Below are positions 223 to 44,057 of a DNA stretch of 64,000 bases, piece by piece. The DNA comes from Rhizophagus irregularis. Its lineage: Eukaryota > Glomeromycota > Glomeromycetes > Glomerales > Glomeraceae. Position 1 is the stretch's first letter; each line of letters begins with the position of its first letter. A program made the position numbers and the translations under genes. Where the stretch lies: assembly GCF_026210795.1 (NCBI RefSeq), contig NC_089434.1:2666001-2730000 (forward strand), written 5' to 3'. Under the pieces are notes generated by a model that was not told the origin of the DNA, did no database searches, and saw only the letters and a program-made list of their open reading frames with translations.

Positions 223-1580
223 ATAATAGATAAAATAAGTAAATGAAAGAATTATCAAATTCTGAACGTGGAGGAAAACAGTTGACAAGGAGTACCTTAA
301 ATTTTTGAAATTTTGGATTTAACAAACAAGTGATTTTAGCCATTGCTTCACAAACGAACACAAAGAACCATAATTGGTAAAACCACATTGTTATGAAAGA
401 AAATATATTTATATACTTCGAAAAATGAAAATGCAAGAAATGAATAGCCTTATTTTTTTTATGAAATATTTAATAGTTATGTTTCCATTTGGCTAATTTG
501 GAAGCGTTCTGATGCTTCTGGGGGTTAATATGCGGTTGCAGAAGTATCTACTGAACCAATCGGTGTTAAGCGAATTTACGATTGGAATTGAGTTTGAAAA
601 CAAAGTTTGGTTACACAATTTTATATATTAATCCTTACACAATCTAACTAAAATTCTTTATTATTTTATGTGATGTCGGCCAGTAGGTAATAAAATATTA
701 GAGTAGTAGGTCTAAATTCTAAAAGAGCCGAACTCTAACCCAGTTCCTTCGTTTGATTATCCGAGCATTTATTTTATTTAGGTTAGTTATCCCTTTTTAA
801 ATCATTAATTCCATGAATCGTAGAAGTGAATTAGTATTGCGTACGCTATCATGAATAATTAGGTCCAACTATTCTATGCAGAGAAAATATTTCTATTAGC
901 CAGAATTATTTTATTTTTCCATTTCTAATCATCATATCTGCAAAAATCTTATGAAAAATATAGTTGTTATTAACATAAAATAATATTACTAACTAGGAAA
1001 CGGAACCCGTTGTAAGCAGTGTTGGAAATCAGATTATTTTTATACGCGCAGAACGTACATTATTCATATAAAATAAATAATATTATTTCAAGGAGTCACT
1101 GATTTTCACGGCTGCGTCGTGAAAGTCATTGATATCCACAGTTCCCCGTGAAATAACTTACGTATAAAGCGCCATTATGAAAAAATATCGCGTACAATCA
1201 TGTACGCTGCATCCATCACTGATCGAGATAAACTAGATTTACGATTTTATTGGCTGATGATCATGTGAATGGATAAAATAAACACCCGTGACCGTAGATT
1301 TTTCATATCGAAGGTTCATCATAATACAGTAAAATTTCAAAAAAGGTAAAATTAGTAAAAATAGAAATTTTATCTTTGATTGGTTCATCAGTATAATGCA
1401 CAAATAAATAAATGTCAATAATTAGCAGGAAAAAAAAACTATTTTTACCTTATAAATATTTAAATTTCAGAACCAATTTTTTTTTATAGCTATTACGCCT
1501 AATAATTTTATCGGTTTTCTTCTACGACACAATAAAATATTGCTCTTTTTGTAATGCCAAATAAGGTCTTATTAAAAAAA
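223..1580. other. Non-coding stretch, no intact gene
   Basis: No intact gene was found. It holds a short imperfect hairpin at 1096-1132 and a motif (TTTTTATACGCGCAGA, about 1034-1049; GTACGCTGC, 1201-1209) that recurs in the same orientation beyond the far end of the gene cluster, at about 9187-9327. Confidence 0.5.
1096..1132. repeat. Short stem-loop
   Basis: Two 15-nt arms (TCACTGATTTTCACG at 1096-1110 and CGTGAAAGTCATTGA at 1118-1132) pair with two mismatches around a 7-nt loop. No product or element boundary was identified. Confidence 0.5.
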
Positions 1581-1618
1581 TTTGTTCTACCTGAATCCTC
1601 ACGTAATATTTATCAAAA

Positions 1619-2177
1619 ATGGGTATAATTTTCTTGACACTTTTAGGTATGTTAAACACATTGCCTTATCTGATCATTTTTTTTTTTTTTTGTAGAGTAC
1701 AAAATTGAGAATGTAAATAACCTAAAAAAAAGATGTGAAAAAGCCATGAAGATTGTTCCAAATTATGGCGAATTCACAAAAAATTATTTTTCTATTAAAA
1801 AAGAAAAGCTAAGTGATATCATTACACAATGGCAAAACAATTATCCAGATTTGTATTACGAATTAGAGCAATGGAAGGAAGGAACCGGATTTACACATGA
1901 AACGATAGCCTTACTTCGCAAAACCAAAAGCAAAAAAGTAGTAGAATGCGTATTTCTAAAGATTTACGAATCGGAAGGGACTGATATCCTAAACTGTGTT
2001 AATATTTATAGAAATTATCCAAAGCCAAGCAAAATTTTGAAAGCACGAAATATAATATTTAAACACAAGAGTGAAAAACTTTTCAATCAACTAATAAAAT
2101 CGCACTCTAAAATCATGGCAGCTCTTATTTTATCCGGAAATAACGGAAATGATGGATTAAAAATATTATGGAACTAA
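1619..2177 (+). CDS. Paralogue A of an unrecognised small protein family
   Basis: Predicted 161-aa protein from two exons. The first is only ATGG (1619-1622), with a GTATAA donor. The second is 1696-2177 after a long T-tract and GTAG acceptor, giving the start MEYKIENVNN. The model rests on paralogues E and C, whose leader and ATGG exon align. An ATG at 1746 could start a shorter protein but would cut off the conserved KKRCEKAMK segment. Family features seen are the CEKAM segment near the start, NYGEF, an aromatic/Trp-rich middle (ITQWQNNYPDLYYELEQW), a CVFLKIYE strand, and a C-terminal AALILSG...LKILW motif. There is no signal peptide or membrane segment. It is closest to paralogue E, its mirror partner in the inverted duplication. 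Function unknown. Confidence 0.7.
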
Positions 2178-2830
2178 CGGCATGTTTACAACATATAACC
2201 ATAAAAATATTAGGTTAAATAACGCCAATCAATTCATAAAAAGAATTAACTTGTGGGAATTACTACAACTCGCATTTTCATTTGTATCTAATGACCAAAA
2301 ATCAAACATCACCAACCGACAACTTGCATTTCATTTGTACTTTTTTAAAAATATTTGACGTCATCAACACAATTTTTAATTACAATCATTCATTTTTTTT
2401 CAGGGTTTATAAAAATTCATAGTTTTCTATTTTATATTATGCAGCCAATTCGGGTTTTCCTTTTTTTTTAATTGCACAATCATTATTTTTTTCACAAGCG
2501 ATCATTTAGTTACACATGCTTCATTTAAAAGTATTTATAAGTTTTCAAAGAAATAAAATTTACTTTTTAAATATACTAAATTCATCTTGGTTCACATGTT
2601 TATAAACAATATAAATAATACAAATAATATTTAGCCGTCTAAAAAAAAAGTTTTAAGGTAAAGAAATATTACATTATTAAAAACTCGGAATTTTGCAACA
2701 GTTGTGAAATAAATTTTTAAGTTACAACATATAGGTAATTAAATTATTTTTAATAATAATTATTATAAATTCAAAAAAAAAAAAATGACTTATTTAACTG
2801 TCTTATATGCAATTACTCCAAAAGATTAAT

Positions 2831-3364
2831 ATGGCTCTGCAGAGAACCGAAGAATACCAAAGAGCCGAAGAATACGAATATAGAATTAAAGATGAAAATA
2901 ACCGGAAAAATATATGTGAACAAGCTTTAAATAATATATCATATAATGGGGAGTTTAACCAAAATTTATTCTCTATCAAGAAAGATAAACTGAATGATAT
3001 TATCAACATGTGGAAAGAGAAATTCCAAGAATTGAGTGATGAATTAGAACTTTGGAAGTTTAGCGAAGGAGATAAATATACAAAAAAGGAAATATTACGT
3101 CCCCTTCACGGGGGCAAAGAATTAAAGTGCGTTTTTCTAAAAGTTTTTGATAAAGGTGAGGAAGAGAATACCTTGTTGAGATGTGTTAGTATCTCTGGAG
3201 ATATTTCAATTAAAGTAAAAGTTAATAGATTTTTCAAATTGATGAGATGGGTTAGTGAGGACGAAAAAAAATATATCAAACTAATAAAGTCATATCCAGA
3301 AGTTATTGCCGCACTTATCATGTCTAGAAGAGTTGGATTAAAATTAATATGGGAGAATGAGTAA
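2831..3364 (+). CDS. Paralogue B of the same family (B/D subtype)
   Basis: Single-exon 177-aa protein in the same family as A, C, D and E. I chose the ATG at 2831 because MALQRTEE aligns with the MTLCKSED start of paralogue D; an in-frame ATG at 2807 would add eight residues. Conserved features are EYEYRIKDENNRK, CEQAL, NGEFNQNLFSIKK, an LxxWK region, CVFLKVFD, a basic/aromatic stretch replacing the HKS segment of the A type, and C-terminal AALIMSRRVGLKLIW. It follows A in the same direction and mirrors the order E-D on the other arm. No recognisable domain, signal or membrane segment. Function unknown. Confidence 0.72.
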   Translation: MALQRTEEYQRAEEYEYRIKDENNRKNICEQALNNISYNGEFNQNLFSIKKDKLNDIINMWKEKFQELSDELELWKFSEGDKYTKKEILRPLHGGKELKCVFLKVFDKGEEENTLLRCVSISGDISIKVKVNRFFKLMRWVSEDEKKYIKLIKSYPEVIAALIMSRRVGLKLIWENE

Positions 3365-4465
3365 TGTCCATCGTCTCACACTACCCTTGCGGGTTTCAAA
3401 AAAAACAAACAAACATACACACATAGTTTTCTTTTACACAATGAATATCAAAAGTAACCGTTAAAAAATTTTTAGTCTACTTTTACTTTAGTGAATAGAA
3501 TTTAAAGGCTTCATAAAGCAGTTTATACAGATTCATAAATTTATTATATTTTATTTCTACGATCACAATTTGATCTGTAACTAAGTAATAATAAGTGTAA
3601 AATATCGTTTATGTTATAACATTTATTTTTATGATGATTAAGAATCTCTGGATATATATAATGTATTTTAAGACAATTATTTCTTATATAAACTTTTATA
3701 TTCGATAAAAATTCGTGCTCACGTGATCAAATCTCTATTGGTTAAATATTATGTGTATTGTAGACAAAGAATACGCGATAGAACCGACGCAAACGCAAAA
3801 CTTTATTTGATAATTTTATTTTCATCTAAAAAAAGGCTTAAATTTGATTGTTCGATTAACTGATAGGGTTCACCCATATGGGATGGCGGGATGTCCATGG
3901 AATTATGGAGTAACCCATTAAAGTAGTGATACCATCTATCCGATAGATAAATCATAAATTTGCGGAAGGCTTATGCGAAGGGTTTGTCCATCATCTGCTA
4001 GAATGCGCAATATAAAAGGGCATGACACAACTTCTATTAGCGCATTCTGATATGATTGTGCAGCACAATGATAAAGTTCTCAAAAGGATTGGCGCATTTT
4101 ATACCAATTCGGACAATATCCACATTACACAATTTTTTCGTTAAAAAAAAAATAGTAGTACAACAATTTAACGAATAATATTGATTCTAGATCATGTGCT
4201 ATAATATCATGTGATATCTTCTTTTTTTTTTAAAAAAAAAAAGATGAATTTTTTTTTTAATCTAAGTTATAGAAATTGTTCATACAAGGGCTTTTGTATA
4301 AAATCTAAATTTTAATTTTATATTGTTAATTTCGGCAAATTTGTTCTTAAAATAGATATTTTTTTTTTTAATATTTAAGTTGAAGAAGGTAAGCAAGTTA
4401 GCAAGTTAGCTAAGATATTGTCAATTTCTTATTCAATTGCATTGTTTCTTTAAGCAATAAGGGTT
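3365..4465. other. Intergenic stretch inside the inverted duplication
   Basis: The first 150 bases belong to the left duplication arm. The rest is AT-rich, with poly-T and poly-A runs around 4140-4260, and I see no gene or structured element in it. Confidence 0.5.
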
Positions 4466-5400
4466 TTAATATTTCTTTTTTTTGTTTGTTGTAACTATTC
4501 TTTTACCTTTAGGAGCAGGATTAGCAGGATTTTTATCATTTAATTGTTGAGAATTTCCATTGATTAGTATTGAACGGGACGTGCTTTCATTATTTCTTAA
4601 GGTATCTTCCTTTTTTTGTAAAGATACTATTGACTTATTTATCGATCTTATATCTATCTTATTATTTCTAAATGGCGTCTTCCTTTGTATTTATTCGTTC
4701 AGTTTAATAATTCTTTGACAATAAAATTCCTTTATTCTTTTTAGTCCTAATAGAACCACAATATTGGCTAAATTAGGATAATTCTTAAAGAATTGATAAA
4801 AAATGAGCCACATATTTCCATTTCTTAATCGCTTTATAGGGTCAATATTTGCATTCTAGTATTTCCAACCAACGCTCATGACGATTTGTATGTCCAATGA
4901 CAACATTTTGTTAATAATGCATGAAGAGAAGAAATCGATTTTGGTCTCCTACATAAGGATGACAATACAACAGGAAGCCAAAGATCAAAATAAGGATATA
5001 ATTTTATTGATTTCTTGAGGACTTGATTGTTTTAAAGGGTTGTTTTGTGATTTATTTTTCGAATTATTTTTTTTTGATTCTAACTGTAAAAAACATTTTT
5101 TTTAGAAACTCTTTAGAAATTTAGGAAATATATCGATAATACTAGTGGGGTTGGAGGTAGGTTTGTCTTCGGAAACGGATTTACAGATTGGTGCAAGGCA
5201 CGGTATTAAAAATCCTTAAACTCACTATCAGACCCAAAATTTTCATCGTATATCTCATCAATTCAAAGGTTCTTAGTTTAGTAAAGTAGGTTCATCAGTA
5301 CTCTATTCATTAATATTAAAACCAATTTTCAGTCAATATTTGCATTTCTGAAGTATTTGTATTTACTTCTGTAGTATTATTTAATATTGTTTTAAGTGAT
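4466..5400 (-). pseudogene. Decayed protein gene between the duplication arms
   Basis: The minus strand reads as protein in pieces: from 4466 (TAA) upstream there is a clean tail with NPANPAPKGKRIV, preceded by IDPIKRLRNGNMWLIFYQFF and, further up, by PCLAPICKSVSEDKPTSNPT near 5150-5220. In-frame stops and frame changes separate the pieces, so no continuous frame survives. Composition and the spaced fragments suggest one former gene, perhaps of transposon origin, but I do not recognise the family. Confidence 0.45.
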
Positions 5401-5723
5401 TATAGTAGGTAATTACTAAATGGTTCGCCAACTTACCCGAACGGAAAAAAAATTTTTTTAACACCCTAAAAAAACGATCGAAATAAGATAATTTGTCTAA
5501 TTTCGACAGTTTTGTTTCACAAAAATTGATTATACTCATTTTTTAATAGTAAATTCATAGTAAATTTTATTAATACATTATTAATACACGATATTAAAAA
5601 AAATTTTAATTTACATGAAATTGGTAATTGAAAAAGTATATGTACAGTAAATCGAAATTATATTTGTTTGTGTTGATTTTAAGATAAGTGTCGAAATATT
5701 TTAACGAATAAAACGTACGAAGT

Positions 5724-5945
5724 TACGATATTTGTGTTTGTATGTTTGTCGATTAATTCAATACGAAATATTTACGGTACTTGCGTAAAAAAGACGGTTA
5801 TGTTTTTGCCAAAACGATATTTTAAATCTGTTATCCCCAGATAATACGATATTTGCGTTTGTATGTCCGACGATTAGTACGATACGAGATATTTTGTGTT
5901 GAAAACTAGTACTTGCACAGAAGATATGTTTTGTACTTTTGCAAT
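5724..5945. repeat. Diverged direct repeat, period about 121 bp
   Basis: Two copies begin TACGATATTTGYGTTTGTATG at 5724 and 5845. Both continue through a CGATTARTNCRATACGARATATTT block and a GTACTTGC block. They lie just beyond the 3' end of paralogue C. Confidence 0.65.
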
Positions 5946-5948
5946 GTA

Positions 5949-6520
5949 TTATTTCCAAATAACTTTCAATCCATCATCTTTGGATAAAATAAGTGCGGCT
6001 ATGGTGTCAGGTTGCGATTTTGCCAGTTGTTTGAAAATTCTTTGACTCTTATGTTTGAATACTTTGTTTAGTAATTTCGACATTATGCCAGGCTTTGCAT
6101 AAGTCCTAGTAATGCTAACACAATTTAGAAGACCAGGTTCTCCTGAATCATAAATTCTTAGAAAAACGCATTCAACTTTTTTCTTCTTGCAAAGAAGAGC
6201 TACAGTTTCATATGAAGGTTTAGATTCTCGCTTCCAGTCTTCTAATTCTTTTTGCAATTCTTGATAGCTATTTTGCCATTTTGTAATGATTGCGTTCAAC
6301 TCTTCTTTTTTAATTGAAAAACCATTAATTGTGAAATCTCCATAATTTGAAATAACTTTCAAGGCTTTTTCACATTTTTTTCTTAGGTCATTTACGTTCT
6401 CAATTTCGTACTTAAAGTCCTTAATTGTGTGCTCTAATAAAAAAAAAACAAAAAATTATTAACCAGATTTATTATCAAAATAATGTTCATATGGTATTAA
6501 TAAAATAAAGACTTGCCCAT
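5949..6520 (-). CDS. Paralogue C of the small protein family, GC-AG intron predicted
   Basis: Predicted 162-aa protein. Exon 1 is ATGG (6517-6520). The intron would start GCAAGT (GC donor) and end ATTAG, and exon 2 is 6433-5949. Joined, it starts MEHTIKDFKYEIENVND, and no other in-frame ATG precedes the conserved segment. Shared motifs are KKCEKAL, NYGDF, FSIKKEEL, WQNSYQELQKELEDW, CVFLRIYD, KVFKHKSQRIFKQL and AALILSKDDGLKVIW. It groups with A and E but is the most distant of the three, and has no mirror partner in the inverted duplication. A GC donor is rare but permitted; the alternative is a start in an unseen upstream exon. Function unknown. Confidence 0.65.
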
Positions 6521-7190
6521 GGTTATTATGACTAAAAAAGTGAATGAAAATTCTTAAAAAGATATGGATGTATACACGAAATATTTCTCGTTTGTTAGTA
6601 TTAATGATACTGAATCAAAGTTGACAAAAAATATTTTGGAAAAAGACACGTTTATAAACCAAACATGGTAACACAACACGGCATGATATGTATATGATTA
6701 GTGATAATCAATCAACAAAAATATTTTACTTTAATTGATTAAATAAATAAATTATAGAATAGTTCGGAATGCGTTATCTATCTATTACTTTATTATACTT
6801 CTAAGAGCTGGTTCAGTAAATAATAATAATAAAAAAAAAACTTTATTATTCTAGAGACAAGGATATTGATATTATTCTTTAAAAATTTCTTTATGTATAT
6901 AATAAGATTTTATTTTGAGACAGTAATTTTGTTTTTTAATCAAAAATGGGTTTATTGTTGGTGTATAAAAACAAAGTTTTTAAAAAAAAGTCTTTATCAA
7001 AATAAATAACGAGATTTTAAGCCAATGAAAAATTAGAAGTTACACTATTGTATTAAAAGGGGTCCTTATATGTTAAAGAATAGGGGTACTGTTGTACAAC
7101 TGAGTTTCCCATGATTTACTGATTTTACAGAATCATTTTCTTTATTCTTTATCTATATAAAAATAATCACAAATTGTATGAATTTATTAA
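6521..7190. other. Intergenic stretch, nothing recognised
   Basis: AT-rich spacer between paralogues C and D. I see no gene and no clear repeat; the right duplication arm begins near 7195. Confidence 0.5.
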
Positions 7191-7344
7191 CTTACTTTAT
7201 GAAGCCTTTAAATTCTATTTTTAGTGAAAACTAAATTTTTTTTATTGCTAAAAAAAAACTAGATATGTATGTGGAAAATCTCAATAAAATGGTACGAAGA
7301 AATAAAGGTAGCGTAAGGCATTACTCAGCTTCATTTCGCTCGTT

Positions 7345-7875
7345 TTATTCCCATAATACGTTCAAATTTTTGCCTCGTGACATGATAAGTGCGGCCATAA
7401 TTTCAGGATGTGACTTTATCATTCTGGTATGTTCTTTAATGTTTTCACCAATCCATCTCTTCAATCCGAACATTCTGTCCATAACTTTTACTTTAATTGA
7501 AACTTCTCCAGAGATACTAACACATCTCAAGGTATCCTCGGTATCCTCGGTATCCTCTCCCTCTCCTCTATCATAGATTTTTAGAAAAACGAATTTTATT
7601 TTTTTACCCCTGCGAAGGGGACTTAATATTTCTTTACTCGTAAACTTACTTCCTACATCGCTCTTCCTCCAACCTTTTAATTGTTCACGCAATTCAGGGA
7701 AACTATTTTGCCAACAGTTGATAGTATCTTCCAGCTTACTTCTTCTGATGAAGAAAGAATTTTGTCTAAACTCTCCATTATAGGAGATATTCTCTAAAGC
7801 TTTTTCACACATTTCTTTCCTATTTTCATCATTCTTAATTCTATATTCGTAGTCTTCGGACTTACACAGAGTCAT
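7345..7875 (-). CDS. Paralogue D of the small protein family (B/D subtype)
   Basis: Single-exon 176-aa protein starting MTLCKSEDYEYRIK with a true ATG at 7875. It is most like paralogue B: shared NISYNGEF, a basic KEILSPLRRGKK segment, FVFLKIYD, CVSISGEVSIKVKV, and C-terminal AALIMSRGKNLNVLW. A 9-bp unit repeated three times inserts EDTEDTEDT near the middle, the main length difference from B. No signal peptide, membrane segment or known domain seen. It lies in the same orientation as C and E. Function unknown. Confidence 0.72.
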   Translation of the reverse strand: MTLCKSEDYEYRIKNDENRKEMCEKALENISYNGEFRQNSFFIRRSKLEDTINCWQNSFPELREQLKGWRKSDVGSKFTSKEILSPLRRGKKIKFVFLKIYDRGEGEDTEDTEDTLRCVSISGEVSIKVKVMDRMFGLKRWIGENIKEHTRMIKSHPEIMAALIMSRGKNLNVLWE

Positions 7876-8430
7876 AAATTAACCTTTGCATATCAGATAA
7901 ATAAATATGTTATATATGTTTCTGAAATGTATAGTATAAAAGATAATTAATTACCTATATAATTGTACCCTTTAAAATTTATTTATAACTTGTTACAATT
8001 CCGTGTTTTTAGAGTTTTTAACAATGTAATTTACTTTACAAATATTTAGACGATTAAATATCATTTTCCCTTTGTTTCACTGCATATGAACATCGTCATT
8101 TTCATGTGTTCAATAAGATGAATTTTTAGTAATTGATTTATTTTTTTGAAAAAATTATAAATACATTTTGTTGATAAAGGAAATTGTTTGTGAATGTGTA
8201 ACAGATCGTTTGTGAAAAAAATTATAAACTAAACAGAAACCACGTTCATTATGCAATGATTATTATGTATACAAAAAAAAAAATTATGCTGTAAATGTAA
8301 AGGAAATAGCCAAGGGTAATTTAACTGAAAAAGGAAATTATAGTGACGTAGTGTATTGAAGGAAGAAAAAATTGCAAATTGCATGGGTCACCACAAGATT
8401 CGCTAAACCCAAGATGATGCAAATATACTA

Positions 8431-8983
8431 TTAATTCCATGATATTTTTAATCCATTTCCATCATTTCCGGATAAAATAAGAGCTGCCACAGTTTTAGAG
8501 TGCGATTTCATTAATTGATTGAAAATTTTTTCACTCTTGTGTTTAAATATTATGTTTCGTACTTTCAAAATTTTGCTTGGCTTTGGATAATTTCTATAAA
8601 TATCAACACAATTCAAGATATCAGTCCCTTCTGATTCGTAAATTTTTAGAAATACGCACTCTACTTTTTTACTTTTAGTTTTGCGAATTATGGTTAACGT
8701 TTCGTGTGTAAATCCAGATTCTTCCTTCCATTTTTCCAATTCATAATACAAATCTGGATAACTGTTTTGCCATTGTGTAATAGTATCGCTAAACTTTTCC
8801 TTTTCGATAGAAAAATAATTTTTTGTGAAATCTCCATAATTTGGAATAATTTTCATGGCTTCTTCACATCTTTTTTTTAAGTTATCTTTATTTTCAATTT
8901 CGTATTCTACAAATAAAATAAATAACTGATCAGATAAAGTAGTATGATTAATATCCATAAAGTGTTGAGTTACGCATACCCAT
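8431..8983 (-). CDS. Paralogue E of the small protein family
   Basis: Predicted 159-aa protein. Exon 1 is ATGG (8980-8983), followed by a GTATGC donor; the acceptor TTTGTAG precedes exon 2 (8906-8431), giving MEYEIENKDNLKKRC. An ATG at 8958 would read through the intron to give a longer open frame, but the ATGG model aligns with paralogue A in leader, intron position and protein start. It is the closest relative of A, sharing NYGDFTKNYFSI, YPDLYYELEKW, CVFLKIYESEGTDILNCV, NIIFKHKSEK and AALILSG. The near-identity of A and E supports a duplication that kept the reading frame. Function unknown. Confidence 0.7.
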
Positions 8984-9010
8984 TTTTGATAGACTAAAAA
9001 ATTATTAAGT

Positions 9011-11640
9011 GAGGGTTTAAGATAGAAAAATTTTGAGTTAGACGATATTTAAAGTAAATTAATTTTCTCCTCTATATATACTTGGAAGAAACCGGATTTA
9101 TTATCAAATAAGGAAGTGAATAATTTATGGATGCGAGTAATGTGATACTGCGAACACTACATGTGAAAGCGAGAGATGGCCGGTTTTTTATACGCGCAGA
9201 GCATATAAAAATTTTGTGCGCAAACCTATGAAGTTCTTATATATATATAAAATTGTAGTGAGCGCATATCTACCTTAACAATAGTAAACGCCACAATCAC
9301 AATCACATGCTCGGGAATGTACGCTGCGCCGACTGCGCGAATACATATAAGCAACGCGCATCACCTGAGGTGGTGTTAGTAAGATTTTACCGCAAAAGAA
9401 TCGGAACCTTCACTTGACCTGATCAAAAAGTTAAATATGGACAAAGTATAATGATGATGGAACTGTTAATGCACCTTTTTTTGGTCTGGTTGCGGAATGG
9501 TATATTTCTAAATATCTTTTATTTAAAAAAAATATCAGATTAAAATAGGAAGAAAACTTCAGATTTAATTAAAGAAATGTTAGTCACGTTAAGGGAGATT
9601 ATATTGAATGTAAAACTATTAATTAAAGTTTACTAATAGAATTGAATAGTTGCAAAGAAAATTGTACAGGTCATAATAATATTAAAACTTACTAAGTTAT
9701 AAATGAAAATGTTTATTATAAGCCCACACGTTTTACCACCAAATGTATTAAATTCTCATTTCTAAGTGTTTTTACAAATAAATTTATAATTATTGGGAAA
9801 TTTTCACGTCCTTTGTTTCAAACTATTGATGATTATTCATTATAATACAGATTCGAATTAAAAATAACGTATTTATCGAAAATCAAAATTTTTTGGTCAT
9901 CTTGTAAATTCAATTCGTTATTATTATTAATTTGTGTAGAATAAATATAATAAATATGAATAAAACAATTAAATCAAGTTCTCCCTTTGAATCAAAAGCA
10001 ACTGCGATGACCAATAAGAATTAATGCTACTATCACTGATTTCAATATCATCGATTATTAAAATCTCGACTGAACAATAATAACTCTATATAAAGCATGA
10101 TCTGCATTAACCGTACGATAATACAGTTTGTACATTAGACTAAGGTACGAAATATTATTATTGCATAAATTTCTATTTAGTAACTCATTGAGTTTATTTA
10201 TATGAACTATGAAGTATGATCTTTGAACGTCTGCATAATAACACAATTATTGAAGCAAATGTATCGCTCTTGACCTGTGGCTTGATCCAACATGATATAT
10301 TTTACAATAAGGGTCAAGGTGTTATTATGCAGACGTCCAAGATCATGTTCCATATAAAAAAATAAATAAATAAACTATATAAGCTTATTTAAAGATTAAT
10401 ATATGTGATATTGACGTAATGTGCCAAAAATATCAAGATATTTATGCAATCTAAAAATATCAGTATGTTAAAAACGACATGATCCTATTTTGTTGCATAA
10501 ATAATAACATATATATTAAGTAAAATAGAAAGATATACTTCCATTGGATAATGAATAATTAAAATGATTATCATGCTACATTTTATAGAAACTAGTATGG
10601 GTTACAAATAACTATTCTACTGAAAACACCTTGACTAATAATAAATAACACTGTTGATTATTTACATTGTTCTACATTTATTTCAGTTTCCTTATTAAAT
10701 GAATTTTTTGTGTTTAAGTACGTTTCAACTATTACAGTACTATACAAAAAGAAAGATTTCTTTGTATATTTAAATAATCTTTATTACATTCTCAATAAAC
10801 CATTGGAAATATTGATTGTTTATTAAATAAAATCTTTGTAATAGTTTTTATTGTAAAAGTGCCTTATTATTTTGTAATAAAGGAATTGATGAGACCGTTC
10901 ATGGAATTCAACAATAAATCCATATATTATCTATTAGAACTTAACTAGTACTTCATTGGCTGGTAAATTTTCCTGTCGGCGAACAATACTATATCACATG
11001 CATAATATATATTATTGAGAAATTTTCCTCAATTTTGTATTTTAACATCCTAATCAAGTCATAAAAATGGAATTAAATATTTTTTAAAGAAACTATTTAT
11101 TTTCAAATAAAGCGAAATTGTATCAACATTAAGCTTAATTATCACATAAAATTTTTCGGCTGGCTTGCGCGTGCTGCTCGAAGATCTGCTTGTTAAAACA
11201 TGATATATAAAAAGTAAAGAAACTTAGGCCACATAAATTAGTTTTTTGGTTCACGTCAAATTTCAATTTATATATAAAAAAAAAATTTATCACGTGACTA
11301 CTTAATGTAATTTTATTGGCGAATTAAATTATTATTCGCGTGTCTAAATAAAAAAATAAATAAAAGTACTTTGCTATAACCAATTAGTTTTGACATTTTT
11401 GTTTACTTTGTTTTACAAATTTCTTTTCTTCTCTTTTTACTTTCATCTAGCATATCAAATGATGCATTGTGCTCACCGACTAATGTTTTTGGTGGCCTTC
11501 AAAATCTGCTTCCCACCAATCAGAGGATAAATATAAATATAAAATTGATATATTTTCACTCACAAGAGTCTTGTTTTTTTTCAACAAGTAAACCTTCCCA
11601 ATCTTTCGATTTTTGACTTTCTTATTGGTTTTCAACAAGG
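9011..11640. other. Long intergenic stretch with one hairpin MITE
   Basis: No gene was recognised. It contains the shared flank motif (about 9187-9327) and the hairpin element at 10198-10358. Short open frames here overlap that element or AT-rich sequence and are not convincing. Confidence 0.5.
10198..10358. mobile_element. Hairpin MITE-like element
   Basis: Two arms form a long inverted repeat: the core GAACGTCTGCATAATAACAC (ending 10244) faces GTGTTATTATGCAGACGTCC (starting at about 10320). Pairing extends outward through ATGATCTT to TTTATATG, with one 7-nt indel. The loop is about 75 nt. There is no coding content. No target duplication could be fixed because the flanks are AT-rich. Transcribed, it would fold into a long hairpin. 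Confidence 0.7.
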
Positions 11641-12230
11641 TATCTTCCGATTTCTATAATATCTTCATAAGAGGATGCGAACATTTGTGGACCACCTCTC
11701 CTCTCGTTATTGTTCCACTGGTTGCGTGTAAAATTTGTATTATAAAAAATACTTTCAAACCCCTAAGATTTCCACAGATTGCGGACCCATCCAATTAGCC
11801 AATATTTTAAAGTTTATTGAGTCCAAATTGTACCATTGTGTACGTATCACGAAGGTTTTTTGCGGATTCCTCCATAAGACCCATCTCATAAGCAATTCCT
11901 TATCTTTACCCGACTCCTTCACCTCCTTCAATGCCAATATAGATGATTCGAGAAAGTCAAACATAATTTCCTTGTTGATCTTGAATCTAATGAGTAATGA
12001 GACTTGATTAGAAGTCACGTTCAACGAAATAGGTGGTGATACTCAGTAAGAAGAGAATCAATAGTGTTACTTGTTGATTTGTTTGTTGATTCATCAGGTA
12101 ATGTAATTTTGAAATAGTTGAAGTAGTTTAGAAGACATACATTTTCAGTCTGAAAATTCAATGATAAACTATGCGTGATTGCGTGAATTATTATACTTAG
12201 TGCAAATGAAAATTTTAAATTCATGAGGAC
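11640..12230 (-). pseudogene. Pseudogene copy 1 of a dispersed family
   Basis: On the minus strand an upstream open piece (12224-12021; contains KITLPDESTNKST) ends in a stop exactly where a second piece in another frame begins (12024-11755; contains ESSILALKEVKE and KELLMRWVLWRNPQKTF). The frame change and the related broken copies at 18840-19430 and 20920-21080 mark it as a decayed gene. The Trp-rich wording is protein-like, but I cannot name the family. Confidence 0.55.
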
Positions 12231-13000
12231 GCTTAGTATTATATTAGTATTTCAAAAGGAAAATTTGTAATTGCTAATCTTATCAGTTATTATCTTTAAA
12301 ATCATTACGTATATGATATTAATAAATAAATGAGGATCTTGTAAGCAAATGCGTTTTTCATTGGACGACAATTTGTTTCGATTATTTATATTATATATAT
12401 TATATCTACCGTCATTACTACAATATTTACATTATATTAGTAATAATTTTCTTTTCAGTATTAATAAAGTAATTAACAAAATTTTATGAATTGGATAACT
12501 ACGCCACATGTAATAATTAGAATCACGTCATCTTTGAACTTTTTGTTAGAACTTTATTATTTTATTAAATAAATTTAATTTTGGAAAAATATGATTGTAA
12601 ATTGTCACACAAATTTGCATTATCTGATAGACCGAAATTCTATACTATTCTCTTTTTGCTGTTCATAAAACTCTATCAGAATCTGCATCATACCCAAAGC
12701 TTCAAGAATAAATACTAACCTTGATTTAATTTTCACAAATGTTCAACAATAACATGAATACATCCTTCTTTTGGACGCTCAATATTATTTTAATTCATTA
12801 GTATCACAGAATTTATCTGTAAGATGAATCGATACCAAAATTTAAAAAATGAACACAACAATTTTATTGGTAGTCAATCATGTGTTCGTTGGCACGTGCG
12901 AAATTTGGCGCAGTATTAGAAAATCACATTTTTTATCGAATCTTCTTTTCAATCCTTTTATTCTTTTTTTTTTAAATTATATTTAAAAATGATTATAAAT
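12231..13000. other. Intergenic stretch, nothing recognised
   Basis: AT-rich DNA between a pseudogene and the MITE at 13002. No gene or repeat was seen. Confidence 0.45.
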
Positions 13001-13001
13001 A

Positions 13002-13135
13002 CCGTATTTTGCGGTATATAAGCACCTTTTTTTGCACTTGATGCCGGCCAAGATCCTCATAATTTTGGCCAAAATCGCCATAATTCTGGCCAGGGGTGCT
13101 TACTTTCAGGGGTGCTTACTTACCGCAAAATACGG
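13002..13135. mobile_element. 134-bp MITE with perfect 16-bp inverted ends and TA duplication
   Basis: ACCGTATTTTGCGGTA at 13001-13016 is matched perfectly in reverse complement at 13121-13136. The inner TAAGCACC blocks pair as well. TA lies directly outside both ends (13000-13001 and 13136-13137), as expected for Tc1/mariner or pogo-type insertion. The interior repeats ATAATTYTGGCC and is non-coding. A degraded relative may lie near 28996-29045. Confidence 0.75.
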
Positions 13136-13355
13136 TAAATTTGAATAATTCTATTTAAAATTACTTGCGAAAAATATTTAGACAAAAAAAATGAGTTATA
13201 TATAAAATGCAAAATTTATAAGTAAAATAACAAATTATTATAAATGATTACAAAAGTTACACTCTTTAATTCTAAAAGTCATTTAATTATAAAAAAAGAT
13301 AAAAAATGATTTCTTTAGAGATCTAATATAACCAAGCAAAAAAAAAATGAATTAT

Positions 13356-16300
13356 CTATGCATCTCTTCTAATAATTTCTGAATTAACAGGGTTATATTG
13401 AATATTGAGTTTATCTAATAAGTCTTTTTTCAATTCCGGAAAATCATTGATATTCCATTCACCTTTACTAATCATTTCTTTAACTTTTTCTCGAGCCTTA
13501 ACAACATCAGCGTAATAATGTCTTAAAGTTAAAATTATATATTAGTAAAAAAAAAAATTGTCAAATAAAGAGATAAATAAAATAAATAAATGACATACAT
13601 TACTTCAGGAAACCATGCTTCCCAACGTCTCTGATGTGGAAGTAAGTAAAATAATTCAATTTCGACTAGAATCTACAAGAAGAAAAAATTGAGTACTTCT
13701 TACAAAAAAAATATAATTTTATTAAAAATGAAATTATTATACCTCTGCCTTTTGCATTAAATATGAGATTCTATTATTATCTTTTTCAATTGCTTTATTG
13801 AGCAAACCAATAAACAAATTCATAAGATATACAACAATCATAAAAGAAAATAAGACAATTAATATGATAAGAGCAGGATGTTCTTTATACGCCCATTTAT
13901 TTGATAAAGCACTTGGATCACCTATTAATAATAGTAAATGATTTAGATTGAACAAGACTTAAAAAAGAAAATAAAAGAATTAAAAGATGTGAATTATACC
14001 TGTAAGAAATAAATATATTGCAAAAAGTGCGGTTCCATAATCTGTAAACATGTTGGTATTCTCATCAGGTGCTTGAATAAATGATGCGTTCTGCGCAGTT
14101 GTTCCATTTATTTGATTATAATACGTTGTATTCAAATTCCAAGGATTATTAGGATCATTATTAATTGTAGGTTGATCCAAGACATAGGCAAGTTTTGGTT
14201 TTAAAAGGACAAAAAAAGCATGAGCAAAACTAATAATTATAATAAATAAAATGACCAAAAAGGAAATCAATTGTTTCGCAACACCAACAATTATTGCGAA
14301 ATAGATACCAAATGATTCAAATGCTCTAAAAAACAATAGAAATTTTATGTCTAATAAAAGACATGAAAATGAGAGCAAAGAAGTGTTTTCATTATTTGAA
14401 TGTAACCAATAAATGGAAGTGGCAGTTGGAATTAAATATGCACCCAAATCTATATGAATGTAATAAATTTAATAATATCATAACAAAGTCATGTATTGTA
14501 TACTAATTTAATTCTTACCAAAAAAATTCCAATAATTGAGAAACCATTTTTTAGGATTATAGATAAATTGACGAATTTCTTGAATAAGATGAAAAGATCC
14601 AAGAGTAATTGAGGTCTTTAAAACGTTCCTCTTTAAATTTTCATTAAGGTAATCTTGAGGAATTGTTGCGACAGCAGTAAAACACAAAAATAAAGCCATA
14701 AATAAATTACAAATTATAAAATAATAATACTTTCCGTAGGCGTTCCACTTAAAATTAATTAATGCTTCCCCATTCCATGTTTTGTAGATATCTCTATTTA
14801 TTATATTAACAAATGGACTAGGTTTAGGCCAAAATAAATCAAAAATGTAATTATAATCTCGTGGATAATTAACAAACTTAATATATGAAATCATAAAAGT
14901 AATTGTTGGTATTGAAGGTCTTGAATGTATTAAGTAAATTTTATAAATAAAATAAATTAATATAATTGTGGAAATTGAAAAAATAATGGAAAAAATTTGA
15001 GCATGATTAGAAATAAAAAGAGCTAAGAAAAGTATTGAAATCACAACTAGCGCATAAGTTACATAATAAAGAACTATTAATGGAATCGGTGGTAACATAG
15101 AAATAAATCGGTCTATATATATTGTATATATTGCACATAAAATAGGCGGATGAATCAAATTAACTTTTGGAGGATGTTTGAAAAAAGAATAAAGATGTAA
15201 ATTGATATTTCGATGTTTTAAACTATAAATAGGAGAATCTATAATCATGGCTGTTTCTAATGAATATCTTAAGATATATTCAGGAAAATGTTCATTCAAC
15301 AATGGCATTGTAGAAGTAATAATACTTAAAAACTTGCTATTGTTTCTTAAATCTTGTCTAAAATAAATTATACATTTTTTATAAATATCTTCTATCAATT
15401 CAAATTTATGTTCTTTAATTGAGAATGATAATAATTCAACACCATATTTCAAAAGACTTGACTTATTATCTATCAAATATGAAGTCCATTCATCATTCAA
15501 TTTAAAACTCTCATAATTAAGTAAAGGTAAAGTGGGAGTTGAAAATTTTAATTTTTTATAATAATAATAATAATAATGATAGTAATAGTAACGTTTTAAT
15601 TTTAATCCTAACAACCCAGGAATAAAATTCATATACTCCATATATTTTAAATATTTTAAATACATATGATAATAATAGTTTAAGGAAATAGATTTGTTAT
15701 CTTCATTAAAATGATAAATAAAAAGACCAATTGTTGTTAATATAAGGATATCACCGTTATCAAATAATGAGCTACTAATTAAATACTTTTCAAAGTTTGA
15801 ATAATCGCTATCAAATTTCGTGGAAGTTCGATACCACTTATCCTTGAGAACTCGCAATTCAATTTCTTCATCATCAATTTTTATTTTCCACTGGTTAAAT
15901 TCAAGTTCACGTTTTTGTACATAGTAATTTGATGAAGCAACAACAAATAATTTACGTATAGCATTCATATAAGGACTGAATAAATGGGCATTTAAGAGTT
16001 TGAAATCTTCCTTGATCCTAAAATGACTATAATAATTATTGGAATAATCATACCAGTTATCAATAATTTCGTCAGAAATTTGAAGTGGAAAATTAATCTT
16101 TGATATCACATTTTCAACTTTAATCTTCTGAACATTTCCATCTAGAATTCCAAACCCATAGTTATTTGTAGTTAGAATGTTATTTGGTAATGGATTTTCT
16201 ATATTTAAACGATCTAAACTTTTTTTCCAACAATAATCCATGATAGATTTCCAAATTCCTTTATTCGGTATACGATCAAATAATTGAAGTAATACAAGAC

Positions 16301-17293
16301 ATGATCCGGTATGTTTCATAAAATTATATAGTTGAATATCTAAATAAAGATTAATTTAGTATAAATGATAAGATTAATGTTTTAATTTTTTAAAAAAATC
16401 AATACCATTGTTTATATCCAAAGTAGCGATAGGAATTCTTAATTCAATTGAATAAATAATAATTTCATCCTCGATTCTTAGACAAATAAATATACCATTA
16501 CTGGAAATTCTCACGTCCTTTGCGTCCTTTGTTTTCATCCAAAACATTCTTATGAAATTTCCAGTAATACTATTCCACTCATAGGCATAATCATTCGAAA
16601 ATAAATAAAGTTTGTCATATCTTGTAATTAATTCAGTTAATTCAAAATCTTCGGGCAACTCGTAAATTCTTTTGCACTTCAAATCGTTATTGTTACTTTG
16701 TGTAGAATAAATATAAATATAAAGATGGCTTTCTCGATATAAAACAAATAAAATAAATTCTCCTTTTGAATTAAAGGTGCAATAATATGGTTTAAAATAT
16801 TTTCTTATGTCGATGAAGTATTCTATAAAAGATTTTAAACGATAATAATTTCTCATATCGATTTTTATTTGATTATTATTTCTTATGTCGATTATATCTA
16901 ATATATAATTAATTATAAAGATTAATGTTTAATATCGATTTTCTTCAGGTAATATTTTTAAGTTAATATTTATAGAAACTACTTACTTAAAAGCGTCCTG
17001 TCATTATTAATATATGCAAGTTTCTTATCATCAGAAACACATATTTGGTTTATTTCATAATTTATTTTGACACTATCGTTTGATTTAAGTTGTCCTTCAT
17101 CTACATCTTCGATATTCCAACCGACAACTGAATGATCTTCTTGACTATAAGTAACAAGATACCTTCCACCTGGTGATATTTCTATCTTAGTAATAGGTTT
17201 ATTATTATGCGGTTTGTCAGTAATACTATTTCTATTGGATTCGATTATGTTATTAGTATTCATGGGGACAATATACGAAGAAGCGTCATTCAT
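13356..17293 (-). CDS. Polycystin/TRP-like ion transport protein with propeller-like N-terminus
   Basis: Seven exons by my splicing (17293-16987, 16897-16406, 16339-14519, 14449-14000, 13921-13743, 13672-13599, 13521-13356) give an in-frame 1162-aa protein. Exon 2-3 uses a GTATTG donor. The N-terminal part has beta-propeller-like strands (KIEISPGGRYLVTYSQ; CTFNSKGEFILFVL). The C-terminal third carries about seven hydrophobic segments, including SFLVILFIIIISFAHAFF, a short pore-like YGTALFAIYLFLTGD, and the last helix IVVYLMNLFIGLLNKAIE, typical of the ion transport (PF00520) fold. Expected location is a cell membrane, probably as a cation channel; the ion is not readable. Similar genes form a large family in Rhizophagus from my knowledge. 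The gene looks intact. Confidence 0.85.
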
Positions 17294-18840
17294 TTTTATA
17301 ACTAGGAAACTATTTGTATAAATACAAATAATTTTTTTTTTAAAAAAAAATAAAAAAAAAGAACGATTCTACCGAAACCACTTTATATAAATTTGACGAA
17401 CACTAATAATTATTTTACATTGTTCCAGTTTCTTGATTAGGATATTATTACGCATTGAAATGACATAAATTCTTCTGGAAAATTATAAAAAGAAAAGGAA
17501 ACTGCGGAAAATGCGTAGGTACTGTACTACGTTCCTTATTATGGAGGATTCGTAGGCGGATTTTGAAATCCGTCTCGTGAAATCTTTTTGGAAAATTCCT
17601 GTTAGATAACTTGTATGCTTTATAACCAGTGAAAATTTATTATCGATAGAATTTTTGTATTTCCGCTGACTAATGATTCAATTTGATGTCAAACACATTA
17701 TTTTTTTTTTATTAATTGATTTGTAGTAAACGTATTTTTTTTTCATTCAAATTCTTATATATAGTAATAAATTTTAACATACAATACAAAAAAACGATCT
17801 TTTTTAACTAAAATTTGTAAAAACTTTTGGTTATCAGATAGTTTTTATTAGCTTTATTATCTATTACCAATAAAAAATAAAAGTAAAATTAAAGCTTTAA
17901 TTAGGGTGATTTTTTACCAATATTAATTAGCCATAATTGATATTAAAATTTCGTTACATTAAAAATTCTTTAAAAAAAAACTTAAGACTATCTCCTCATT
18001 TTTTGAAAATATTTGTTTAGCAAAGTGGCTGAAGAAAAATCAAGTTTTTACCGGAATACTTTCATAAGAATTAAAGTTATCTGAATATAAAAGCCGACTC
18101 TTGCGACGATCATAATCTTTCAATAGTAAAATTCATATGGAACTGCATGACGATATTTAATTTTCTTCTGAAAAAAAACGGAGTTTTAGATTTTGTGTTA
18201 GTCTGAGCAAAAAAATTTTTGCGCACATTTTATATACTGCAGTAAAATCTATTTTTAATGATTATGACACCTTTTGAACCTAATAGGAAGTTTAAATGAT
18301 ATAAGCGATTTTTTATTAAAAACAAGATTTTTTTTTTTTGGAATTTCGTGTGACATTTAATCTTGTATAATTTCGCATCATTATTTTTTTGCCACTTAAT
18401 ATAAACCTTTATTAATAGGGCGTTATGTAGTATTTAAAAATAGATACAGTTGGTTTTGAGCTGAGAAAATAGCACTCGAGTTACCGGAAAAGATGGTGAA
18501 ACTGAAAAAGCAAGCTTTTAATTATTTAATTGTCCGGAACGAAGCGAAGGTATCGATACTAAAAAGAATTTCGCGAAAAAAAATTTTGAAAATTTTGAAA
18601 AATAGAACAGATTTCAAATACTGTACAATTAATTTCACTCCGCAGTTTCCGTTTCTAATATTATGTACTCTACACGTAAATAAATTTAAATGGTTCCTAT
18701 TGACTATTGATTTTCTAACGGGAGTGAAATCTTAAATATTATGTCATTTTATAAAACACATTCTTGATATTATTCCATGAACTTGAGGTTTGAACAATAT
18801 CATAGTAACGTTTAAGTTAACACGCACGATAATATAATAA
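17294..18840. other. Intergenic stretch upstream of the channel gene
   Basis: Presumed promoter side of the channel gene followed by AT-rich spacer. An 80-codon open frame at 18493-18735 contains a motif (TTGTCCGGAACGAAGCGAAGG) also found at about 22551 and looks like repeat-derived sequence, not a gene. Confidence 0.45.
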
Positions 18841-19430
18841 CATTCATGATATGTGATTCTCGATTTCTGAAAGTCTTTCTGAATGGTTTGTTTATAATAT
18901 CCATAATAGTGAAACATTCGTGGTCCGCATTTTATTTCATAACCGTTCCATTGGTTTTTATATGTGGAAAATTTGTCAATGTAGAAAATATTTCAAACCC
19001 AAACGGTGTCATTGTATTCGCTATTACGGAGGTTTTTTGCAGATTCCTCTGTAAGACCCCATCTCTTAAGCAATTCCTTATCTTCACACCCTCAATTCCT
19101 ACAATGCCAATACAGATGATCGGATTCAGTTGCTCGCGTTCTTCAAGAATTCAATACGAAACCTTTCAATTACGATTTACGAGACTTGATTGAAGTTTAA
19201 GATGGTGAATTGGATCAAATCAACTGGCCTTTTGAATGTGATTTCGCCATAATTCTCCAAGGCAGTGAGAATGCTGTCCACACCCCACCACAATCTTTCA
19301 TTTGGAACTAAATCTTGGTATGTCATACTTTCATTCGTCCATATCATCCAATATACGACAATTGCATTAAATGCCACATGATCCCTAATGAAATCAATTG
19401 TGATTTCAAACGATCACCCAAAGTCGAGGT
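18840..19430 (-). pseudogene. Pseudogene copy 2 of the dispersed family
   Basis: Minus-strand homologue of 11640-12230. It keeps an open upstream piece (AFNAIVVYWMIWTNESMTYQ, LVPNERLWWGVDSILTALE) ending at 19177, then continues with stops through pieces matching copy 1 (KELLKRWGL; a block with GTTTTTTGCRGATTCCTC in the DNA). It is thus more complete upstream but broken downstream. Protein family not recognised. A hAT-like MITE sits directly beside it. Confidence 0.55.
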
Positions 19431-40870: not shown

Positions 40871-42690
40871 TAAGGACGGACTTGAACTTAAACTTGGACT
40901 TCGGAACGACTTGGACAGCTTGGATTTCGAGCTTTTATTGGTCCATAAAACATATTTTTTTTAATTTTGTAGATAAATTTGATAATCGAAAAATCAAAAA
41001 AAAAAAATTTTCTTAAATCTGATTATGCTTACTCCAGTAACTTGTCTTACCAATATGCAAATACAATATGAATCACTGTCCAATACGTGCACGTGCAAAT
41101 TTTACATATTTGAATTTATCCCTCAGTTTTGAATTTTGATTGGAACATTTTCAATTTTATAAAATAGGCAAATTTATAAATTCATAAAAAAAGATTAATT
41201 CGAATTTTAACAAATAACCTATACCATTTTTTATTAATTTTAATTATATAAATATTTAATAAACCAATAAAACATCATATTATTAGGAAAAATTTTATTA
41301 TAAGTTAATTTTTATTAGCTTCTGGATATATATACTATATTTATTATATATTTGTGAATACCTTTGATTTTTGTGCTGTTAGAAATCCATTTCTGGTGGT
41401 GGGAATTTTTTTTTTATTATTTAATAATATTTTTTTTTTTAAATATTAATAAAAAAGTTTACATTTTTTATTACAATACTTTTTCATGTTTAATATAAAT
41501 TTATTTAAATAATAATATTTGATATAGTTTTTTGAAATCCAGTTTGATGATTTCTTCTCTAATTAAATAGTTTGTGACAGTAACCATTCAATAGGCATTA
41601 TGATTGATAAATAAATTTTTAATTAAAAATAAATTGTTTTTTAAAAAAAAGTTTTAAATTAAGAATAATTTTTTTTAAAAAAAATTAAAAAAAATTATAT
41701 AAGTAATTTATAACTAATTATTATTCAATTATTTAATTTATTTGATTATAAATATATTAAAATTAAAAAAAAAATATTTTTTGCAAAATAGCCTGTAATA
41801 TTTTTTTCAATCTTGCAACCACCTGTTCACCTTTTATACTGGTATTCATTTCTCCATTCACAGAAATCCTTAATACTATTAATTTTTTTTTATTTTTTTT
41901 TATAGTTTTATTATGTTTTATTATTATTTTACTATTAAAATTTCTAATTAAGTTTTGCCACTTTTTTTCAACTTGTTATATCTTTCATTTAATATTATTT
42001 ATTATAATTTATGAAATTTTCATATTTTTTACTTATTATTAATTATAATTAAAATAGTAGTAATATTAATTATATATATTAAAAATTTTTTAATTATATT
42101 ATATAATGTTAAAATTTAATAAAATATTATATTTTTATTATAATTATAAAATAATTTTTGTTTAATATAAAATCAGATAAAAATATTGCAAATTTCAAAA
42201 TTTTATTATTATTTTTATTATAATATATATTATTTATATAATTTATAAGATTTTTTTAAAAAAATTCAATGAATAAAAAATATAATAAAAATATTTAATT
42301 GTATTAAAATAAATTGTTACCAATTACTATATTATATTATTAAAATTAAATACTATTTTTTTTTTATAATATTTATTAATTAAAATTTTATGATTTTAAC
42401 TAATTATATAATTATGTAAGACTTTTTGTGTTTTATTGTTTTATAAAATATTATTATGATTATTTTGTTTTTATTACTTTCATATACAAGAAAGTATTTA
42501 TATATATTAATTACATATATTTTCCCGTATATTAATATGCGAAATAATAAAATAAATAATGTTTATCAGTATTATTTTTTTTAATTTGCTAAAAAATATA
42601 AAATAAAAAATATATATTTTTTAATAATAATTTTTTTAGTTTTAAAATAAATTATTTAAAATTGATTTTTTTTAATTTTAATTATAATTT
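40871..42690. other. AT-rich stretch, nothing recognised
   Basis: Very AT-rich, with few G or C beyond short islands. No gene or defined element apart from sequence similar in style to 34801-37080. Confidence 0.4.
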
Positions 42691-43223
42691 CTTTTTTTTA
42701 AAAATATATAATTAATTAATAAATTTTTTTTAATTTAAAAAAACTTATTTATTATTTATATAATATGATCGATATTAATTTAATAGTTTATTAAATTAAA
42801 TATATTTTTATCAAATTTGTTTTTTGAATATATAATCAGTTTTATTTACTATATAATTATTAAAAAATATTTTATAGTAATAAGTAATTCCATTCACAAT
42901 TCTTGTCCAAATGGCATAATTCTAATAATTATACAATATTAAAAAATTATTTATTATTTTTATATTTTATTTTTATTATCTCTTTTTAATATGGAGCTAT
43001 TTTATAATTTATATTAGATTAAATATTAGATAATATTATTATTAAAATAAAAAATTTTAATACTATATTTTGAAAAACTATCTTATATAATTTTTGTAAA
43101 TTTGTTTTAATAAAACTATAAATTGCATTTGTTAGATTAATTAATAATACAATTATTTTAATAATAATGAATTAAAATATTGTTTATTCTTTTTTAGCTT
43201 ATATATTGTATAGATTGCAATAA
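42691..43223. repeat. AT-rich dispersed repeat, copy 2
   Basis: Closely matches 37561-38109 in the same orientation. It has a short insertion before the closing TTGTATAGATTGCAATAA and small indels throughout. Confidence 0.8.
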
Positions 43224-44057
43224 ATCTCAAGTTTTTTATAATAATTTAAAATATCAAAACAATGAGTAAAATGAGTGTATTATTAAGAAGAAATAATAAA
43301 TTTAAATTATAAATTATTAAAATAATTATAAATCATCCAGTTAGAAATTCTTTTATTTTCAATTTACTTTTTATAGAAAATAGTGAAAAATTGTTAATAA
43401 GAATAATTTTATATTAAAATTATGTTTAAAAATATTATTTTACTATTAATAAATGATTTAAAAAAATTAAAATTAATTGTTAATATTTTAAATAAATAAA
43501 TTTTTATTTAGATTATTTAATTGTATAAGAAAATAAAAAAAAGTATACATTTTAGCAATTTTTCAATTGTGAAAAAGAACTTCTTTTATACATGTTTGAG
43601 TTATAAAAATCATATTTTACTTTCCATATTTAAATTATAAAATAGTAATCTTTTATTGTATTATTTAAGTAAATTCTATACATATAATATAATATATGTA
43701 AATTTATAGCTTATTATGTTACTGAACAAAATATTACCTTTTTAGTAAATGAATTTTTTATTCTATTTATATACTATTTTTATGAATTTGACTACTAAAA
43801 AGGGTAGTATAAATTTTACTCTAATTATAGTTTATTTATTAATTTATTACCTACAACTGTAAGTTAAGCGAGAGAATCATCGATTATGATTTATATAAGT
43901 AAAACAATAATCCCGAGCCAACTCTCTGCTAAAAAAAAAAAGAAACGGCCGACAGTTGTTAAACAATTTTGTAAAATTTAATAATTTTAAGCTATATTTG
44001 TTATTTGAAATGCATTTTTTAAAAAAAGAAGAAAATAAAATAAAATAAAATCTATTA
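43224..44057. other. AT-rich stretch, nothing recognised
   Basis: No gene seen; probable 3' flank of the secreted-protein gene at its right end. Confidence 0.4.

What the first reader, a model, noticed from the sequence alone, without database searches (positions are those of the whole stretch)
1580..9010. Five-gene family arranged as a mirror-image inverted duplication
Genes A(+) B(+) C(-) D(-) E(-) all belong to one unrecognised family, sharing a CE(K/Q)AL/M segment, an NGEF/YGDF motif, a CVFLK(I/V)(Y/F) strand and a C-terminal AALI(L/M)S...LxxxW. A pairs with E and B with D, and their spacers and flanks match in reverse complement, so one two-gene block was duplicated in inverted orientation around C. 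All five frames stayed open although the spacers diverged, which suggests selection on the proteins. Inverted gene pairs can maintain copies by gene conversion or make double-stranded RNA. Function is unknown.
Basis: partly seen in the sequence, partly recalled or inferred. Interest (0 to 1): 0.8.

Follow-up and report, generated by a model that had tools for sequence, protein, structure and literature searches.

The report
Inverted gene-pair duplication in a fungus
A short stretch of fungal DNA carrying two related genes was copied once in mirror orientation, and one gene of the pair has since been kept nearly unchanged while the other has changed fast; this is ordinary gene-family growth with an interesting imbalance in selection.

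Summary
Five related genes with open frames lie at 1.6-9.05 kb; a block of about 2 kb with one type-1 and one type-2 gene (1559-3552) recurs in reverse complement at 7160-9050. C is not the axis: it is an older type-1 copy on the right, and a decayed transposon-like remnant lies across the axis. Whole-genome searches found seven members: five here, one about 0.86 Mb away, one on another contig. Both pairs have the same synonymous divergence (0.41, 0.39), consistent with one event, but their proteins evolved differently: A/E dN/dS about 0.2, B/D about 0.9 and not distinguishable from 1; difference p 2.5e-4. B/D are probably living genes, but no site class above 1 was shown. No sign of gene conversion. 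Double-stranded RNA is untested and would need read-through across the centre. No known family matched with confidence; structure prediction was off; other fungi could not be searched. Best reading: birth-and-death growth of a small family of probably soluble proteins in what is probably Rhizophagus irregularis, with type 2 evolving fast.

The parts
1559..3552 (+). left arm of the inverted duplication (genes A and B with flanks)
7160..9050 (-). right arm (genes D and E with flanks), reverse complement of the left arm
1696..2177 (+). gene A, type 1, main exon with stop; a 4-base first exon ATGG at 1619-1622 is inferred from alignment with E and C, not from transcripts (a second possible donor follows it)
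   Evidence: ORF 1746-2177; sequence; 5' alignment
2831..3364 (+). gene B, type 2 (start chosen at the ATG shared with D; the listed ORF opens at 2807)
5949..6433 (-). gene C, type 1, main exon with stop; a possible ATGG first exon at 6520-6517 would need a GC donor (uncertain)
7345..7875 (-). gene D, type 2, partner of B
8431..8906 (-). gene E, type 1, partner of A, main exon with stop; inferred ATGG first exon 8983-8980, or an unspliced start at 8958
4235..5623 (.). decayed, internally deleted copy of a dispersed transposon-like element lying across the axis; three main pieces about 4235-4748, 4814-5138, 5206-5623
   Evidence: 23 rows besides self elsewhere in the genome; long open frames in the C22 and C25 relatives

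Best explanation
This is a local cluster of a small family of probably soluble, intracellular proteins. An ancestral gene split into type 1 (A, C, E) and type 2 (B, D); type 1 duplicated again (C); then one segmental duplication copied a type-1 + type-2 pair of about 2 kb in inverted orientation. Both copies of both genes were kept. Type-1 copies stay under purifying selection; type-2 copies changed about four times more in protein at the same synonymous age while their frames stayed open. Shown: the duplication and its extent, equal synonymous age of both pairs, the difference in selection, open frames. Inferred: that the proteins act inside the cell, that type 1 does a conserved job while type 2 follows a changing partner, and that both pairs were kept for dosage or diversification.
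For: Collinear inverted arms with ends; a DNA search of the genome with the left arm gave 5 matches, itself included, all in this cluster (the tool warns that a missing match does not show absence). dS equal: A/E 0.41, B/D 0.39. Codon ML on a fixed five-gene tree: wAE 0.205, wBD 0.92; they differ, p 2.5e-4; wAE differs from 1, p 3e-7. Other estimators, A/E then B/D: NG86 w 0.17, 0.75; YN00 dN/dS 0.067/0.337, 0.326/0.264; Biopython ML 0.079/0.324, 0.304/0.361. At gap costs 12 and 16 coding indels are triplets in 2 of 2 (A/E), 5 of 5 (B/D) and 3 of 3 (A/C), against 7 of 25 and 4 of 20 in the alignable noncoding parts. Random substitution left both frames open in 1 of 4000 (from B) and 4 of 4000 (from D) simulations. 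In B/D, columns conserved in the other five members change more slowly (w 0.49 against 0.93, p 0.028, uncorrected). Highest 19-residue hydropathy 1.17 among the 7 stretches used.
Against: No transcript, small-RNA or protein data could be seen. dN/dS near 1 in B/D is also what relaxed constraint gives: wBD does not differ from 1 (p 0.77), and even the variable columns of B/D give 0.93, not above 1 (p 0.81), so positive selection is not shown. With looser gap costs coding gaps are not all triplets (B/D 6 of 10 at cost 8, 7 of 17 at cost 6, 6 of 22 at cost 5; A/C 3 of 5, 3 of 10, 3 of 19; A/E 1 of 3 at cost 5). The seven-protein tree does not recover B and D as a group (open fork); their pairing rests on collinearity and identity, and the codon model assumed it. 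First exons are inferred, and the hydropathy check leaves them out. How old the family is outside this genome is unknown.
Confidence: 0.72

Rival explanations
1. B and D are drifting after duplication (relaxed constraint or early decay) and only A and E (and C) matter.
For: wBD not different from 1 (p 0.77); NG86 bootstrap 0.47-1.26; variable columns 0.93, not above 1; non-triplet gaps with loose gap costs.
Against: Both frames open after 127 counted substitutions (1 and 4 of 4000 simulations); coding indels all triplets with stiff gap costs (5 of 5); conserved columns slower (p 0.028 uncorrected); most family motifs kept.
Confidence: 0.17
2. The inverted arms act as a source of hairpin or antisense RNA that silences the family or the nearby element.
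For: The geometry permits a hairpin if transcription reads through from B to E; regions with young genes in R. irregularis produce abundant small RNAs (PMC10234402, passages seen).
Against: Mature mRNAs of a pair are same-sense; the coding parts of the arms are 76-86% identical by BLASTN with a longest identical run of 42; selection acts on amino acids of A/E. [quoted passage not shown] No reads were available here.
Confidence: 0.06
3. Gene conversion between the arms keeps the copies alike.
For: Inverted arrangement can allow it (recalled); one 42-base identical run in A/E.
Against: Runs are not longer than in 2000 permutations (p 0.24 for A/E, 0.20 for B/D, 0.12 for the whole arm); dS about 0.4 in both pairs.
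Confidence: 0.04
4. Assembly artefact (duplicated haplotypes).
For: None seen.
Against: Coding parts of the arms differ by 14-24% with many indels between, C is a third, different copy, and the sequence outside the arms is unrelated.
Confidence: 0.01

Closest known systems
Inverted segmental duplication in a birth-and-death gene cluster (general kind; recalled)
   Same: local paralogs of several ages, both orientations, one event copying two genes
   Different: nothing mechanistic; the two genes of one block differ about fourfold in dN at equal dS
Pfam PF07842 (GCFC), best repeated weak match
   Same: 3 of 7 members match at E up to 5, best E 0.019
   Different: 15 bits against a cut-off of 28.1, a short stretch of the profile; twelve other families appear for single members, the best at E 0.016, so I take this as background
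Paired conserved and fast-evolving paralogs such as poison-antidote or recognition pairs (recalled)
   Same: two related genes side by side, duplicated together, one slow and one fast
   Different: no activity, expression or drive tested; no family match

Membership tests
Inverted duplication of a gene pair | collinear reverse-complement similarity including noncoding flanks, with ends | tested here: met
   about half of spacer and 3' flank alignable
Inverted duplication of a gene pair | both gene pairs of equal age | tested here: met
   dS 0.41 and 0.39; branch sums A+E 1.11 and B+D 1.14 in the three-class model
Inverted duplication of a gene pair | partners group together in a tree of all members | tested here: inconclusive
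   A/E 84/90 within A/E/C 100/100; B/D not recovered, with two long rows present
GCFC (PF07842) | score above the gathering cut-off | tested here: not met
   best 15 bits against 28.1
Any family with a solved structure | significant sequence match in the PDB | tested here: not met
   profile: one match with E up to 5, at 0.38; protein B alone: best E 0.2
Any known fold | structure similarity | not testable with these tools
   structure prediction switched off
Secreted effector | signal peptide | tested here: inconclusive
   no 19-residue stretch above 1.17 in the 7 stretches used; first exons not certain and left out for A, C, E; no signal-peptide program run
Small-RNA-producing inverted repeat | small RNAs from both arms | not testable with these tools
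   no reads available

The most novel reading that the evidence does not exclude
The type-1/type-2 pair is a two-component module (for example a recognition or poison-antidote pair, or two subunits) in which the conserved protein binds or controls a fast-diversifying paralog; the inverted duplication gave a second, differently tuned module, so the two arms now specify two alternative recognition specificities.
Probability: 0.08. Interest if true: 0.65.

Novelty: new member of a known kind. Interest (0 to 1): 0.33.

Why it matters
Two genes copied in one event give an internal clock: at equal synonymous age one protein hardly changed and its neighbour changed at nearly the neutral rate without losing its frame. 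That is a clean case for asking what young genes of a probably plant-symbiotic fungus do, and whether fast evolution means diversification or loss of constraint. The genome event itself is ordinary.

Tried and rejected
Known families: Pfam, NCBIfam and PHROGs on the 7 members gave, besides GCFC in 3 of 7 (best E 0.019), only single-member matches, the best at E 0.012; rejected as background. PADLOC was not scanned. PDB by sequence: nothing significant. Bacterial/archaeal and viral relatives: with the five-member alignment and two peptide patterns per scan, 66 and 122 stretches matched a pattern and none was confirmed; such scans can miss distant relatives. A left-hand counterpart of C: TBLASTN of the 7 proteins against the window gave nothing outside the five genes better than E 0.26, and that one overlaps gene A on the other strand. 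Common neighbours of the two outside members: none recognised among frames of 70 aa or more in 9.8 kb around each; only two of those frames from L028 and one from L027 were scanned against Pfam. Papers: the listings (25 of 334 shown; 0 found; 10 of 24; 1; 7) showed no title on this cluster; only passages of PMC10234402 and PMC10640383 were seen, so I make no claim that the family is absent from print. The protein tree leaves B, D and the two outside members unresolved.

Full report
What is there. The window has 25.4% G+C and lies in contig 6 of a genome of 146,748,485 bases in 32 contigs. A table passage in a paper on Rhizophagus irregularis DAOM197198 lists 146,773,001 bases, which I take to be that paper's assembly (PMC10234402), and one of its figure legends speaks of chromosomes 9-32. 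Five assemblies of the species, with 33 scaffolds each, are listed at 146.8-161.9 Mb in another paper (PMC10640383). I infer R. irregularis; neither species nor strain is proved.

The inverted duplication. BLASTN shows four collinear reverse-complement matches between 1611-3552 and 7160-8991. A local alignment of the two arms scores 1782.5, against at most 391 for 30 shuffles and at most 497 for 17 pieces from elsewhere in the window. Region by region (300 resampled controls each): the 5' flank with the intron aligns end to end (133 positions, 78%); in the spacer 2482-2812 aligns (288 positions, 87%, 28 gaps) while 2175-2481 does not; in the 3' flank 3462-3552 aligns (82 positions, 88%). These noncoding identities come from local alignments with gaps and are optimistic. 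Just outside the arms nothing exceeds the controls; the looser alignment ran about 100-220 bases further at the two ends of the left arm. I set the arms at about 1559-3552 and 7160-9050. A whole-genome DNA search with the left arm gives 5 matches, itself included, all on C6 at 2.667-2.676 Mb; the tool warns that missing matches do not prove absence.

C is not the axis. The midpoint between the arms is near 5356. Gene C lies at about 5949-6520, on the right, and no counterpart was found on the left. Across the axis, 4235-5623 holds three main pieces of an element with relatives on C22, C25, C7, C19, C16, C1, C32 and elsewhere on C6, plus short matches on C9 and C23, at 66-89% identity (23 rows besides self). 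The C22 and C25 relatives carry open frames of up to 588 and 643 aa. Two C22 frames were scanned against Pfam: one gave nothing, the other DUF6589 at E 0.0094, below its cut-off; the C25 frames were not scanned. I read this as a decayed, internally deleted transposon-like remnant; that is an inference.

The family. Searches of the whole genome with B, E and the two outside members give the same seven places: five in the window, C6:3529950-3530534 (+), about 0.86 Mb away, and C29:2657599-2658195 (-). One further match at E 0.63 I set aside as chance. Two rows were flagged with a stop inside: D, at its own stop codon, and A, where the match runs back into the inferred intron (sequence). The seven align with 13 invariant columns. 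In the protein tree A, E and C group firmly (100/100) and A with E at 84/90; B, D and the two long outside rows are unresolved, so the pairing of B with D rests on collinearity and on 57% identity against 29-43% of B to the other five. In the type-1 genes the alignment suggests a tiny first exon ATGG followed by an intron; for C the donor would be GC, and A has a second possible donor, so these starts are inferences.

Age and selection. Nei-Gojobori dS is 0.41 for A/E and 0.39 for B/D; dN is 0.07 and 0.29. A/C and C/E have dS 0.58 and 0.67, so C is somewhat older. A codon model that I wrote (five genes, fixed tree with B and D as sisters) gives w 0.205 for A/E, 0.92 for B/D and 0.37 elsewhere. 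A/E differs from B/D (2dlnL 13.42, p 2.5e-4), A/E differs from 1 (p 3e-7), B/D does not (p 0.77), and B and D do not differ from each other (p 0.39). Pairwise fits give 0.24 and 0.81; NG86, YN00 and Biopython's ML agree in direction.

Are B and D still genes? In simulation, 127 random substitutions spread over two lineages left both frames open in 1 of 4000 runs (from B) and 4 of 4000 (from D); for A and E with 54 substitutions the fractions are 0.035 and 0.026. With gap opening costs of 12 or 16 the coding indels are triplets, A/E 2 of 2, B/D 5 of 5, A/C 3 of 3, against 7 of 25 and 4 of 20 in the alignable noncoding parts. With looser costs this fades: B/D 6 of 10 at cost 8, 7 of 17 at 6, 6 of 22 at 5; A/C 3 of 5, 3 of 10, 3 of 19; A/E 1 of 3 at 5; B/D 6 of 15 and noncoding 20 of 69 under one search's scoring. 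In B/D, columns conserved among the other five members change more slowly (w 0.49 against 0.93, p 0.028, uncorrected); the variable columns are not above 1 (p 0.81), and A/E show no such difference (p 0.62). So B/D look like living proteins whose average rate is near neutral. That can mean a mix of constraint and diversification, or relaxation; positive selection is not shown.

Gene conversion and double-stranded RNA. The longest identical runs (42 in A/E, 27 in B/D) are not unusual (p 0.24, 0.20; whole arm 0.12; 2000 permutations). Since A and E, and B and D, are each read as homologous sense strands, their mRNAs cannot pair with each other; only a transcript crossing the centre could fold back. 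No reads were available to test this.

What the proteins are. The stretches used are 158-199 residues, six of seven basic (pI 8.3-9.5; the C29 member 5.6), with no strongly hydrophobic stretch (inferred first exons of A, C and E left out). Scans of bacterial/archaeal and viral collections confirmed no relative. Fungal collections other than this genome were not searchable, so how widespread the family is remains open.

Verdict. A real and well-delimited inverted duplication of a gene pair in a small family that matched nothing known here; the genome event is ordinary, the unequal selection on two genes of one age is the interesting part.

Noticed in passing
window 7531-7557: Gene D contains a perfect in-frame 9-base tandem repeat, 3 copies; B lacks five codons there.
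   Followed up: partly
window 1012-1071 and about 1073-1167: Short dispersed elements left of the left arm: 43 rows besides self match this neighbourhood across the genome, most of them these two stretches; 40 of 72 candidates were scored.
   Followed up: partly
window 13980-17368: Four consecutive minus-strand frames, probably one gene; 13983-14447 has an ion transport domain (PF00520, E 1e-8), 14511-16355 no Pfam match at E 0.01.
   Followed up: no
window 10159-10410 and 12927-13209: Stretches that match their own reverse complement (63% and 62%), like miniature inverted-repeat elements.
   Followed up: no
window 11793-11947 and 18970-19120: A repeated stretch of about 150 bases, 76% identical.
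   Followed up: no
window 60588-61649: Open frame with repeats of about 20 residues (HQLRNSLSEQTFAAYQ-like).
   Followed up: no
window 42001-44000: Very AT-rich stretch, 11.6% G+C.
   Followed up: no
L026 2539-2901 (-): Part of a Mis12 kinetochore protein gene about 6.6 kb left of the window (PF05859, E 1.5e-12).
   Followed up: no
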